From Fibrobacter sp. UWB5 (GTDB lineage Bacteria > Fibrobacterota > Fibrobacteria > Fibrobacterales > Fibrobacteraceae), in assembly GCF_002210295.1 (NCBI RefSeq), contig NZ_MWQH01000007.1, forward strand, positions 62,001 through 126,000: a stretch of DNA of 64,000 bases, read 5' to 3'. Below are positions 12,657-17,622 of the stretch, one piece after another (position 1 is the stretch's first letter; each line of letters starts with the position of its first letter). A model generated the notes under the pieces. The model made no database searches. It had not been told where the DNA came from and worked only from the letters and a program-made list of their open reading frames with translations. The position numbers and the translations under genes are program-made.

Positions 12657-13319
12657 ATGAAGAGATTTTGGGTTAGAGTTGCCTTTTTGGTGGCGGTGAT
12701 GTTCTTGGCCGGGTGCTCGAGGCATTATGCGCCTTCGGCGGCCCAAATGATGAATGCGCGGGACGGTGAAAATTTTGGCATCGGAACGACGGTGCGGACT
12801 GGTGACCTATATGATTCGGATATGGTGGACTCCCAGGGGGAAAGAACTTTTGAAGCAGATGAAAATAATTGGAATATTGATTGGTTTGCGTATTCCAAGT
12901 ATTCGTATTTCGTGTTTGGCTTGAATTTCGAAAATCTGGCCCCGCGTGTCGTGGCAGGTGCACGGACGGATTATTTGGGACTGTTTGGTTGGTACGGCAT
13001 CCCGGTGACAGATGAAAAAGATCACGACCATTATCCGGCAGGTGCAATGCTTGCGGAACAGCTCCCGATAAACGAGAAGATTAAAATCGGTGTCAGCGAG
13101 TACATTTCAAACAATATGTACCCCGTAGAAGAAACGACCGAAGGCAGCTCTAAAAAGACATATGTGAATATGTATACCGAAATGGGTGGCGGGCTTTATG
13201 CGGTGTACAACAATACGGTGTCGGTGGAGTTTCGTGTCGGAAAAGAATTGGATGAACCCAATTACAGATACTATTTGCTGGTGAATATAGCGGGGAATTC
13301 TCCGCCCCAAAAGAAGTAA
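12657..13319 (+). CDS. Lipoprotein of unknown function
   Basis: A 220-residue lipoprotein with lipobox FLAGC (Cys20) and a strong GGTGGAGG ribosome-binding site. The mature part has alternating beta-like segments rich in Tyr and Phe (SKYSYFVFGLNFENL) and ends in a QKK tail. No catalytic motif and no family recognised. It sits between the TfoX-like gene and moxR on the same strand, with separate leaders on both sides. Confidence 0.7.
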   Translation: MKRFWVRVAFLVAVMFLAGCSRHYAPSAAQMMNARDGENFGIGTTVRTGDLYDSDMVDSQGERTFEADENNWNIDWFAYSKYSYFVFGLNFENLAPRVVAGARTDYLGLFGWYGIPVTDEKDHDHYPAGAMLAEQLPINEKIKIGVSEYISNNMYPVEETTEGSSKKTYVNMYTEMGGGLYAVYNNTVSVEFRVGKELDEPNYRYYLLVNIAGNSPPQKK

Positions 13320-14362: not shown

Positions 14363-14411
14363 GGCGTGTGTCGCAGGCATCAAGCTTGCGTGAAAATCGT
14401 GCGAAATCATT

Positions 14412-14449
14412 AAAAAAGAAAAACGCTCCTTGTCGGAGCGTTCTTTTTT
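14412..14449. terminator. Bidirectional terminator between moxR and the collagen-like gene
   Basis: Eight-bp stem AACGCTCC / GGAGCGTT (14422-14429, 14435-14442), loop TTGTC, with A run before and T run after, so it serves both converging genes. Confidence 0.85.
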
Positions 14450-14468
14450 GTTATAGGTTCGAGGCTGC

Positions 14469-17372
14469 TTACTTCAAGAAGCCGCGGTCCATAGCCGTGA
14501 CCGGGATGATTCTGATGTTGTCGGCCATATCTGTGATGATGGCAACACCGGTCAGGTAGTTGATCCAATGCTTGTCATCGGAGGAATACTTGTGATAACG
14601 CAAGTCGCGTCCGTCTGCGCCATGGATTTGGCGCTTGCTGATGGAGATGACGAACGGAACCAGGAATTGGTCGTGCGAAATGGCCAAGGTGACGCCCGGC
14701 TTCATCTTGTCATAGGTGAAGTACTTATGGACGATTACGTCTACGATGCTGTCGACATCGAAGAAGGCGGCTTCGCAGTTGCTTTTTTCGGTGCTGTTGC
14801 TGTAATCCCTGTAAGCCGCTTTAGAGAATCCGCCCCAGCCGGATTTGCAGGAGTTACGCTTGCTTTCGTTCTTGACGTACACCTTTTCTAACAGGTCGTT
14901 GTTTGTGGTTTGGTATTCGTTATCGGTTTCGCTATACCATTCAGTTTCGGTGCCGACGTCCTGACCCTTATTTTGGGCGATAATCCATGCGGATTGCTTG
15001 GCGCGATAATAGTAGGTGTGCATATAGGAAAAATCGTCGAGATCCATTTCTTTAAGTTTGTTGCCTACAGTTGTGCATTGCTGTATGCCGGCTTCGTTCA
15101 GCGGGTCGTTTGGACCGTACTTGTCGCTGGGGCGTTCGGCGTGGCGGAGAATGAACGCTACCTTTTCGGAGGGGCGGAGGCAACCCAGGACATCGTAGAT
15201 TGAGGAGAATTGGTCGGTGGTGGAGCGAAGCGCCTTGCATTCGGCGCTGAGCGGCTCAAAGCCTGCGCCGTCTTTTCCATCCTTGCCGTCGACACCATCT
15301 TTACCATCGGCTCCATTTTCGCCGTTGCGGAGTTCGCCAATCTTTTCGGTGCCGCAATAGATGTCGTAACCGTTGATGGCGTCATTCTTTACGACATAGC
15401 AAGAGGTTCCGTCCTTACCGTCATTACCATCATGACCATCGGTACCGTCTTTACCGTCGGCACCATCCTTGCCGTTTTCACCGTTCTTGAGTTCACCGAC
15501 CTTGATGTTGCCGCAGAAGATGTTGTAGCTGTTGTTGGTCAGGTTTTCTTCGATGCGGCAGGAAGTTCCGTCCTTACCGTCGTTTCCATCCTTGCCGTCT
15601 TCGCCGTCTTTACCATTGGCACCGTCCTTACCGTCAGCGCCCTTTTCGCCGTTGCGGAGTTCGCCGACTTTGAGCTCGCCGCAGTAGACATCGAAACCGT
15701 TGATGTTTTCGTTGGCTTCAACGCGGCAAGACGTTCCGTCCTTACCGTTGTTGCCATCCTTACCATCTTTTCCGTCCTTGCCGTCAGCACCCTTTTCACC
15801 ATTGCGAATTTCGCCGACCTTTTCTTTACCGCAGTAGACGTCGTAACCATTGATGTCGTCGTTGGCTTCGACGCGGCAAGATGTACCATCCTTACCATCA
15901 ATGCCGTTGTTGCCATCATGACCGTCGTTACCATCTTTACCGTCGGCGCCGTCCTTGCCGTCTTTACCGTTGTAAAGTTCGCCAATCTTTTCGGTGCCGC
16001 AGTAGACTTCGTATCCGTTGATCTTTTCATTCTTTACGACGGAGCAAGAGGTTCCATCTTTACCGTCCTTGCCGTCGATGCCGTCGTTACCATCTTTACC
16101 GTCGACACCGTCCTTACCGTCAGCGCCCTTTTCGCCGTTGCGGAGTTCGCCGGCCTTTACGCCGCCGCAAATGATGTCGTAGCCGTTGATTTCCTCGTTA
16201 ACGGCAACAGTGCAGGATGCGCCATCCTTACCATTGTTGCCGTCCTTTCCGTCTTCGCCGTCTTTACCGTCGGCACCATCCTTGCCGTCAGCGCCCTTTT
16301 CGCCGTTGCGAAGTTCGCCGACCTTTTTGCCGCCGCAGAGGATATCGTAACCGTTGTCGTTTTCGGCTACGGTGCAAGAGGCTCCGTCCTTACCGTCTTT
16401 ACCATCCTTGCCGTTAGTGCCGTCCTTGCCATCCTTGCCGTCGATACCGTCTTTACCATCTTTACCGTCGACACCGTCCTTACCGTCAGCGCCTTTTTCG
16501 CCGTTCATCAGTACGCCGACCTTTTCGTCGCCGCAGAAAACGTCGAATCCATTGATTTCCTTGTTAACGGTAACGACGCAAGAAGAACCATCCTTGCCGT
16601 CCTTACCATCCTTACCGTCTTTTCCGTCCTTGCCGTCTTTACCGTCGGCGCCCTTTTCGCCATTGCGAAGTTCACCGATCTTCACGCTGTCGCAAATGAC
16701 GTCGTAGCCGTTGATTTCAGGATTCTCTTCAACTGTACAGGAAGAACCGTCCTTACCGTCTTTACCATTCGTTCCGTTGGTGCCGTCTTTACCGTTGACA
16801 CCGTCCTTGCCGTTGGAGCCATCCTTACCATCGGCACCCTTGTCACCGGTGTCACCTTTGTCGCCCTTGTCCCCCTTGGCGCCTTTTTCACCGGTTTCTC
16901 CTTTTTGTCCAGCCTCACCTTGTTCTCCCTTTTCTCCTTTTTCACCATTGCGGAGTTCACCGACCTTTTTGCTGCCGCAAAGGATGTCGTAGCCGTTGAT
17001 GTCCGGATTTTCGATGACGGTACAAGAGGAACCGTCTTCTCCATCCTTACCGTCTTTACCGTCGGCACCGTCCTCTCCGTCTAGGCCATCCCACACGACT
17101 CCTTTGAGCGTGTCGGCGCAAATCAGTTTGTAACCGGTCCTGTTGCTGAATCCAGTTGTGTCGACGACGGTGCAGCTGGTTCCATCCTTACCATCCTTGC
17201 CGTCTTTACCATCTTTACCGTCCTTTCCGTCTTTGCCGTTGTTACCGTTGTTTCCGCCGGAACTCAGTTCGTCTTGGACATCGTTGAGGGTGTCTTCGCA
17301 ACCAGAGAGTGTGATTGCCATAAATAGGGGGATTGCTGACAATACAGCAACTTTAGTGACTAGTTTATTCAT
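14469..17372 (-). CDS. Collagen-like lipoprotein with C-terminal histidine phosphatase domain
   Basis: A 967-residue lipoprotein: lipobox TLSGC (about Cys25), then a long region (about 40-728) of Gly-X-Y triplets, mostly GKDG and GADG, interrupted by 11 copies of a module of about 30 residues of the type SCxVxxNxxINGYDxxCGxxKVGELRNG, each with two cysteines. The last 235 residues are a histidine-phosphatase fold: RHAERP (catalytic H744) and ISHDQF (second H900), with further Cys. The phosphatase would sit at the end of a long outer-membrane stalk. Substrate unknown. The ribosome-binding site is GGAGAAAAT. The repeats make the opposite strand open over 624 codons, but that is a shadow. Confidence 0.88.
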   Translation of the reverse strand: MNKLVTKVAVLSAIPLFMAITLSGCEDTLNDVQDELSSGGNNGNNGKDGKDGKDGKDGKDGKDGTSCTVVDTTGFSNRTGYKLICADTLKGVVWDGLDGEDGADGKDGKDGEDGSSCTVIENPDINGYDILCGSKKVGELRNGEKGEKGEQGEAGQKGETGEKGAKGDKGDKGDTGDKGADGKDGSNGKDGVNGKDGTNGTNGKDGKDGSSCTVEENPEINGYDVICDSVKIGELRNGEKGADGKDGKDGKDGKDGKDGKDGSSCVVTVNKEINGFDVFCGDEKVGVLMNGEKGADGKDGVDGKDGKDGIDGKDGKDGTNGKDGKDGKDGASCTVAENDNGYDILCGGKKVGELRNGEKGADGKDGADGKDGEDGKDGNNGKDGASCTVAVNEEINGYDIICGGVKAGELRNGEKGADGKDGVDGKDGNDGIDGKDGKDGTSCSVVKNEKINGYEVYCGTEKIGELYNGKDGKDGADGKDGNDGHDGNNGIDGKDGTSCRVEANDDINGYDVYCGKEKVGEIRNGEKGADGKDGKDGKDGNNGKDGTSCRVEANENINGFDVYCGELKVGELRNGEKGADGKDGANGKDGEDGKDGNDGKDGTSCRIEENLTNNSYNIFCGNIKVGELKNGENGKDGADGKDGTDGHDGNDGKDGTSCYVVKNDAINGYDIYCGTEKIGELRNGENGADGKDGVDGKDGKDGAGFEPLSAECKALRSTTDQFSSIYDVLGCLRPSEKVAFILRHAERPSDKYGPNDPLNEAGIQQCTTVGNKLKEMDLDDFSYMHTYYYRAKQSAWIIAQNKGQDVGTETEWYSETDNEYQTTNNDLLEKVYVKNESKRNSCKSGWGGFSKAAYRDYSNSTEKSNCEAAFFDVDSIVDVIVHKYFTYDKMKPGVTLAISHDQFLVPFVISISKRQIHGADGRDLRYHKYSSDDKHWINYLTGVAIITDMADNIRIIPVTAMDRGFLK

Positions 17373-17507
17373 ATTTTCTCCAATAAGTGAGCGGATGCAA
17401 ATTTAGTTTATATGTGTAAAGTTTTCAATACGTATTCCGTATAAAAGTTGTAAGTTTTTTGTAACATGCTATGGCCGTTTTTGGGCTGTTTTCGCCAATG
17501 GTCGGGT
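17373..17507. other. Divergent intergenic region, left part
   Basis: Leader of the collagen-like gene on one side and upstream sequence of purA on the other. AT-rich near 17400-17465; no open frame. Confidence 0.5.
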
Positions 17508-17523
17508 TGTGACGGCTGTCACT
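17508..17523 (+). promoter_or_regulatory. Crp-like operator upstream of purA and the Crp/Fnr gene
   Basis: TGTGA-CGGCTG-TCACT is a 9-of-10 match to the Crp half-sites TGTGA-N6-TCACA. It is followed by a TATCTT -10-like box at 17539-17544, which would put the operator centre about 36 bp upstream of transcription start. The gene after purA encodes a Crp/Fnr regulator, so autoregulation is a natural inference. Confidence 0.5.
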
Positions 17524-17622
17524 AGCGGTTCACTTTTTTATCTTTATGGCGAAAAAGGGCTCAGGGAAATTCCCTGGGTAGCTTATTTTCGTGTTTAACT
17601 AGCTTAAAAAAACGAAGGATAT

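What the first reader, a model, noticed from the sequence alone, without database searches (positions are those of the whole stretch)
14469..17372. Eleven two-cysteine modules in a collagen-like stalk tipped by a histidine phosphatase
The lipoprotein alternates Gly-X-Y stretches (GKDG, GADG) with 11 copies of a ~30-residue Cys-x(~16)-Cys module, then ends in a histidine phosphatase with both catalytic His (744 and 900) and the RHAER motif. Bacterial collagen-like proteins are known, but the regular interruption by a disulfide-size module and an enzyme at the tip are unusual. A surface stalk presenting a phosphatase (phytate, sugar phosphate or nucleotide) is inferred.
Basis: partly seen in the sequence, partly recalled or inferred. 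Interest (0 to 1): 0.65.

Follow-up and report, generated by a model that had tools for sequence, protein, structure and literature searches.

The report
Collagen-stalked surface phosphatase of Fibrobacter
A gut cellulose-degrading bacterium makes a lipid-anchored protein in which a long collagen-like stalk, pinned at intervals by eleven small disulfide-sized modules, carries a phosphatase at its end; the same stalk carries other tips elsewhere in the genus, so it looks like a swappable surface-display stem that has not been described.

Summary
The minus-strand ORF 14469-17372 encodes a 967-aa lipoprotein with 126 Gly-X-Y triplets in 12 runs, 11 Cys-pair modules and a C-terminal histidine phosphatase.

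The modules are mostly C-x14-C. Across relatives the spacing is almost always even (216 of 231 modules), and AlphaFold predicts a three-stranded beta-meander with the two Cys at opposed positions. That fits a disulfide-closed hairpin. The module matches nothing in Pfam, the PDB, phages, plasmids or viral contigs, and is essentially confined to Fibrobacteraceae.

It is not a one-off. All 80 Fibrobacter genomes searched have this phosphatase family. The window genome has six lipoprotein members on unlike stalks. The collagen/Cys-module stalk also carries Fib_succ_major domains (PF09603), so stalk and tip are exchangeable.

The phosphatase has a branch-1 fold but the two residues that mark branch 2: an extra Arg (RHxxR) and an Asp after the second His (HD). 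They are invariant in 49 of 49 relatives, with no conserved branch-1 Glu.

The gene sits in a polymorphic slot between MoxR and PurA and changes much faster than these neighbours, under purifying selection. Trimerisation, surface exposure and substrate are inferred.

The parts
14469..17372 (-). whole gene, 967-aa lipoprotein
17298..17372 (-). signal peptide and lipobox LSGC (Cys25)
   Evidence: sequence; lipoboxes in orthologs and paralogs
15261..17255 (-). stalk, aa 40-704: 12 Gly-X-Y runs (126 triplets) alternating with 11 Cys-pair modules; 2 Pro in 666 residues
17118..17174 (-). Cys-pair module 1 (aa 67-85, x17)
16977..17024 (-). Cys-pair module 2 (aa 117-132)
16692..16739 (-). Cys-pair module 3 (aa 212-227)
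16533..16580 (-). Cys-pair module 4 (aa 265-280)
16335..16376 (-). Cys-pair module 5 (aa 333-346, x12)
16167..16214 (-). Cys-pair module 6 (aa 387-402)
15999..16046 (-). Cys-pair module 7 (aa 443-458)
15831..15878 (-). Cys-pair module 8 (aa 499-514); the module modelled by AlphaFold2
15681..15728 (-). Cys-pair module 9 (aa 549-564)
15513..15560 (-). Cys-pair module 10 (aa 605-620)
15354..15401 (-). Cys-pair module 11 (aa 658-673)
14472..15248 (-). histidine phosphatase domain (aa 709-967)
15132..15146 (-). R743-H744-A-E-R747: nucleophile His and extra (branch-2-like) Arg
   Evidence: R743, H744 and R747 invariant in 49/49
15003..15005 (-). R790, second phosphate-pocket Arg
   Evidence: 49/49
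14670..14675 (-). H900-D901: second catalytic His and candidate general acid/base
   Evidence: 49/49, D901 the only invariant acid
14419..14445 (.). terminator-like hairpin on both strands between this gene and the convergent MoxR gene
   Evidence: consensus match; total count near the shuffled expectation

Best explanation
This is a surface-displayed phosphatase on a segmented collagen-like stem. The chain is exported and lipid-anchored at Cys25 (inferred from the lipobox). Three chains wind into a triple helix along the GKD-rich Gly-X-Y runs (inferred). Every 7-23 triplets the helix is interrupted by a ~30-residue three-stranded beta-meander (predicted) whose two Cys are opposed across a hairpin and closed by a disulfide (inferred). 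Three meanders packed together would re-register and lock the proline-poor helix, so the modules act as built-in trimer clamps (inferred). An extended stem would be about 110 nm of helix plus the modules, which would carry the enzyme well beyond the outer membrane. The tip is a catalytically intact histidine phosphatase that works through a phospho-His744 intermediate, with D901 as likely acid/base, on an extracellular phosphate ester (inferred; substrate unknown). Stem and tip are exchangeable units in Fibrobacter (shown by comparison): the phosphatase occurs on Ser-rich, Pro/Thr-rich or globular stems, and the stem occurs with Fib_succ_major tips.
For: Architecture. Collagen match. Module: beta-meander with strand register that opposes the Cys (pLDDT 78) and even Cys-Cys spacing in 216/231 modules. 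A lipoprotein DsbA with a CPYC motif is encoded in the genome, and a DSBA oxidoreductase was detected in the F. succinogenes S85 envelope proteome (PMC4619616). Phosphatase: AF2 pLDDT 80.7, pTM 0.82, Foldseek to PGM/RosC/PGAM5/PhoE, R743, H744, R747, R790, H900, D901 and W936 invariant in 49/49, dN/dS 0.13-0.29. Exchangeability. Genus-wide presence: 80/80 genomes for the phosphatase family, 74/80 for the module.
Against: No trimer was modelled: only monomer prediction is available and the triple helix is inferred from sequence. The stalk has only 2 prolines, and GKD triplets have not been shown here to form a stable helix. A Foldseek search with the module found no significant relative. The phosphatase model rests on 5 sequences, the five models varied (mean pLDDT 42-81), and its PDB matches have high rmsd and TM-scores mostly of 0.35-0.6. 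Surface rather than periplasmic location is untested. No VKOR was found and DsbB was not sought, so the oxidant for disulfides is unknown.
Confidence: 0.5

Rival explanations
1. The Gly-X-Y/Cys-module region is a flexible hydrophilic spacer, not a triple helix. The modules are independent monomeric beads and the phosphatase acts as a monomer on a tether, much as the Ser-rich and Pro/Thr-rich linkers do in the paralogs.
For: Paralogs in the same genome use Ser- or Pro/Thr-rich spacers of quite different nature with the same enzyme, and the tree requires at least 5 switches between stalk kinds, so the stem may only need to be long. Only 2 prolines in 666 residues.
Against: Strict Gly every third residue over 126 triplets is not needed for a mere spacer and is kept in orthologs whose stalks differ in length. 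The PF01391 match is strong.
Confidence: 0.2
2. The tip is primarily an adhesin or receptor: the phosphatase fold binds a phosphorylated surface ligand and catalysis is secondary. Its fast divergence at a fixed locus reflects recognition by phage, predators or competitors.
For: The phosphatase domain is 32-91% identical where MoxR and PurA are about 95-100%. dS is 0.82-0.90 against 0.29-0.31 for PurA in three genome pairs, suggesting allele exchange. The same stem carries Fib_succ_major tips of unknown function. The locus is empty or differently occupied in some genomes.
Against: All seven key residues are invariant in 49/49, and dN/dS stays at 0.29 or below, which is hard to explain without catalysis.
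Confidence: 0.17
3. Periplasmic enzyme: the lipoprotein stays in the periplasm and the stalk spans or coils there, with the phosphatase scavenging phosphate from esters that reach the periplasm.
For: Lipobox proteins can remain periplasmic, and no surface-export signal was tested.
Against: An extended stem of about 110 nm or more would not fit a periplasm; stem length varies from 24 to 143 triplets among orthologs, which is easier to tolerate outside the cell.
Confidence: 0.13

Closest known systems
Bacterial collagen-like surface proteins (Scl1/Scl2, Lcl, PclA, BclA; PF01391)
   Same: Surface or exported protein with Gly-X-Y repeats and globular end domains; interruptions of the collagen region are known, e.g. 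PclA (PMC8968730); Lcl has a trimeric C-terminal domain (PMC11162425)
   Different: Regular disulfide-sized beta-module every 7-23 triplets, lipid anchor, enzyme at the tip, almost no proline; NCBIfam SclA, SclB and Lcl models score far below their cut-offs
Histidine phosphatase superfamily branch 1 (PF00300: PGM, PhoE, RosC, PGAM5)
   Same: Fold and HMM match; RH motif, second Arg, second His
   Different: Has the extra Arg (RHxxR) and HD Asp that mark branch 2 (PMC10218301, PMC3969271) and no conserved branch-1 Glu
Sts-1/Sts-2 histidine phosphatase domain
   Same: Described as mixing features of both branches (PMC10218301)
   Different: Sts keeps the branch-1 Glu plus the extra Arg; here the Glu is missing and the HD Asp is present
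Fibrobacter Fib_succ_major (PF09603) lipoproteins
   Same: Same lipoprotein-plus-collagen/Cys-module stalk in relatives such as L135, L138 and L144
   Different: Different tip domain; in the window genome the module occurs only in this gene

Membership tests
Collagen-like protein (PF01391) | Gly-X-Y repeats above the family cut-off | tested here: met
   E = 6e-51, 170.5 bits against cut-off 27.2
Collagen-like protein (PF01391) | trimeric triple helix | not testable with these tools
   only monomer prediction is available
Scl/Lcl adhesin families | curated NCBIfam score | tested here: not met
   155.5 against 325, 58.6 against 400, 24.8 against 500 bits
Histidine phosphatase branch 1 | HMM match and fold | tested here: met
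   PF00300 23.3 bits (cut-off 21.7) for the domain alone, 14/14 relatives match; Foldseek hits; whole protein 20.5 bits, just under the cut-off
Histidine phosphatase branch 1 | catalytic quartet R, H, R, H | tested here: met
   R743, H744, R790, H900 in 49/49
Histidine phosphatase branch 1 | conserved Glu as general acid/base | tested here: not met
   no acidic column between R790 and H900 is invariant; D901 is the only invariant acid
Histidine phosphatase branch 2 | extra active-site Arg (RHxxR) | tested here: met
   by motif: R747 in 49/49; its place in the pocket was not checked
Histidine phosphatase branch 2 | Asp after the second His (HD) | tested here: met
   by motif: D901 in 49/49
Histidine phosphatase branch 2 | PF00328-type sequence match | tested here: not met
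   no PF00328 match for any of 14 members at E <= 1
Bacterial lipoprotein | signal peptide and lipobox Cys | tested here: met
   read from the sequence: LSGC25; also in orthologs and paralogs
Surface-exposed lipoprotein | exposure on intact cells | not testable with these tools
   no localisation data for this protein

The most novel reading that the evidence does not exclude
Fibrobacter has an undescribed interchangeable surface-display system. Its stems are proline-poor collagen segments locked at intervals by a lineage-specific, disulfide-closed beta-meander that acts as an internal trimer clamp. Its tips include a new histidine phosphatase subfamily with a branch-1 fold and branch-2 catalytic residues. 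Stems and tips are re-paired repeatedly and diversify fast at a fixed, polymorphic chromosomal slot.
Probability: 0.35. Interest if true: 0.72.

Novelty: new variant of a known kind. Interest (0 to 1): 0.52.

Why it matters
If the modules clamp trimers, they would show how a bacterium can build long collagen stems with almost no proline, and they would be a natural part for designing recombinant collagens. The phosphatase family is in every Fibrobacter genome searched, yet I found no study of it; it could be a surface enzyme for phosphate supply or for reshaping neighbouring surfaces during fibre attachment in herbivore guts. Its mixed catalytic signature bears on how the two branches of histidine phosphatases are related. 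The swappable stem and tip, and the fast change at one locus, make this a good surface-diversification case in a key cellulose degrader.

Tried and rejected
Module against Pfam, the PDB (sequence and fold), phages, plasmids and IMG/VR: no relative. A phage tail-fibre origin of the Cys-module is therefore not supported; an EWLxxLKG module seen in some orthologs was not pursued. The search for related loci with the seven-paralog alignment failed for lack of a conserved stretch. No paper was found joining Fibrobacter succinogenes and histidine phosphatase. A precedent I recalled, a lipoprotein pullulanase with a collagen-like stretch, was not confirmed in the held paper and is not used. Phytase activity of Fibrobacter: nothing relevant in titles and abstracts. 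Positive selection on the phosphatase: not supported by whole-domain dN/dS of 0.13-0.29. VKOR: absent.

Full report
OBSERVATION. The minus-strand ORF 14469-17372 encodes a 967-residue protein. It starts with a signal peptide ending in a lipobox (LSGC, Cys25). Residues 40-704 hold 12 Gly-X-Y runs of 7 to 23 triplets, 126 triplets in all, 53 of them GKD, with a strong Pfam Collagen match (E = 6e-51). Between the runs lie 11 modules with two Cys each. The module consensus is TSCxVxxNxxINGYDxxCGxxKVGELRNGEKG. Cys-to-Cys spacing is x14 in nine, x17 in the first and x12 in the fifth. The C-terminal 260 residues are a histidine phosphatase.

THE MODULE. AlphaFold2 with 23 module sequences gives a three-stranded meander, strands 7-12, 17-22 and 25-31 of 39, mean pLDDT 78. 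In the hairpin formed by the first two strands, Cys7 faces Cys22 (inferred from the strand register; I had no coordinates). Over the proteins tabulated the number of residues between the Cys is even in 216 of 231 modules: 14 (173), 18 (23), 16 (11), 12 (9), against 13 (8) and 17 (7). A hairpin closed by a cross-strand disulfide predicts such two-residue steps; a metal site or a loop would not. These modules come from related proteins, so the count overstates the independent evidence. The genome encodes a DsbA-like lipoprotein with a CPYC motif, and a DSBA oxidoreductase is among the F. succinogenes S85 envelope proteins (PMC4619616); no VKOR was found. The module has no match in Pfam, PDB sequences, PDB folds (none below E = 1), phages, plasmids or viral contigs. 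Within the phylum it occurs in 86 of 168 genomes at E <= 1e-6, all in one family except one genome of another family in the same order, and in 74 of 80 genomes of the genus at a looser threshold.

THE PHOSPHATASE. A 5-sequence AlphaFold2 model has pLDDT 80.7 and pTM 0.82. Foldseek finds branch-1 enzymes: PGM, RosC, PGAM5, PhoE, with TM-scores mostly of 0.35-0.6. A profile of 14 relatives matches PGAM5- and BPGM-type chains, and all 14 match PF00300 but none PF00328. In 49 aligned members R743, H744, R747, R790, H900, D901 and W936 are invariant. According to PMC10218301, branch 1 uses a Glu as general base and lacks an extra active-site Arg, while branch 2 uses an Asp and has that Arg; PMC3969271 describes the branch-2 RHGxRxP and HD motifs. 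The Fibrobacter family has the Arg and the Asp of branch 2 by motif, and D901 is its only invariant acid. So the fold is branch 1 and the catalytic signature is branch-2-like. That R747 and D901 sit in the pocket as in branch 2 is inferred from the motifs, not shown. Four further Cys (712, 731, 842, 866) are kept in 42 of 49, compatible with disulfides in an exported domain.

A FAMILY, NOT A ONE-OFF. The window genome has seven members including this gene; six are lipoproteins on unlike stalks: collagen/Cys-module (this one), Ser-rich, Pro/Thr-rich and larger globular regions; the seventh (L007) shows no signal peptide. All 80 genomes of the genus have at least one member, and matches at E <= 1e-15 stop at the family Fibrobacteraceae. 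About 20 genomes hold an ortholog at 47% identity or more, and those read in full carry a collagen/Cys-module stalk of 24 to 143 triplets and 4 to 14 modules; some add EWLxxLKG modules. Two named relatives are MAGs labelled Fibrobacter succinogenes (L111, L112). On a tree of 49 phosphatase domains the stalk kind changes at least 5 times on well-supported branches (a quick tree with some long branches). In other Fibrobacter proteins the same lipoprotein-stalk ends in a Fib_succ_major domain instead (PF09603, E = 1e-18). Stem and tip are thus separable units.

LOCUS AND EVOLUTION. The gene lies alone between a convergent MoxR ATPase gene and a divergent purA, and this place is kept from close relatives to a 33% identical one. 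MoxR and PurA are about 95-100% identical between genomes while the phosphatase domain is 32-91% identical. Whole-domain dN/dS is 0.13-0.29, so the enzyme is under purifying selection; dS is 0.82-0.90 against 0.29-0.31 for purA in three genome pairs, which suggests exchange of old alleles. Beyond the nearest relative it also changes faster than one comparable paralog (for example 49% against 72% identity), though not in G058. In other genomes the slot is empty (G056), filled with other proteins (G055, G061), or holds a 67-residue phosphatase remnant beside a Fib_succ_major-like lipoprotein (G075).

MECHANISM. Shown: lipobox, Gly-X-Y runs, module array, intact catalytic residues, conservation, exchangeability. 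Predicted: meander and phosphatase folds. Inferred: disulfide closure, trimerisation, the modules as clamps that keep register in a proline-poor helix, surface exposure (about 126 x 3 x 0.286 nm = 108 nm of helix; the rise per residue is textbook knowledge), and catalysis on an external phosphate ester. The substrate is unknown: no gene context points to one.

KNOWN OR NEW. Collagen-like surface proteins and interruptions in them are known (PMC8968730), and FCB-superphylum collagen-like proteins with a DUF1566 domain have been noted (PMC11162425). I found no paper on this stem, its module or the phosphatase; the library is open-access only. I rate it a new variant of a known kind.

Noticed in passing
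window 14363-17622 and L163-L172: The space between the MoxR gene and purA is a polymorphic slot across Fibrobacter: empty in G056, other proteins in G055 and G061, a phosphatase remnant plus a Fib_succ_major-like lipoprotein in G075.
   Followed up: partly
window 12657-13319: A 220-aa lipoprotein on the other side of MoxR is only 27-43% identical between genomes whose MoxR is 96-100% identical: another fast-changing envelope gene.
   Followed up: no
L008 2645-5044 and 5040-6662: Two phosphatase lipoproteins lie in tandem in the window genome (C1, about 370-375 kb) with different N-terminal regions; tandem pairs recur in relatives.
   Followed up: no
L135, L137, L138: Arrays of Fib_succ_major lipoproteins with short collagen/Cys-module stalks, several in a row, in G029 and G075.
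   Followed up: partly
L076, L077, L079: Some orthologs replace collagen runs by GKSAFEIAKEKDPNLTVDEWLASLKG modules, which resemble modules of phage and bacterial collagen-like proteins (from memory, not tested).
   Followed up: no
L072 (G058 ortholog, stalk): The G058 ortholog carries a near-perfect duplicated module plus collagen unit (GTSCSVVKNDKINGYEVYCG...), which points to stalk growth by unit duplication.
   Followed up: no
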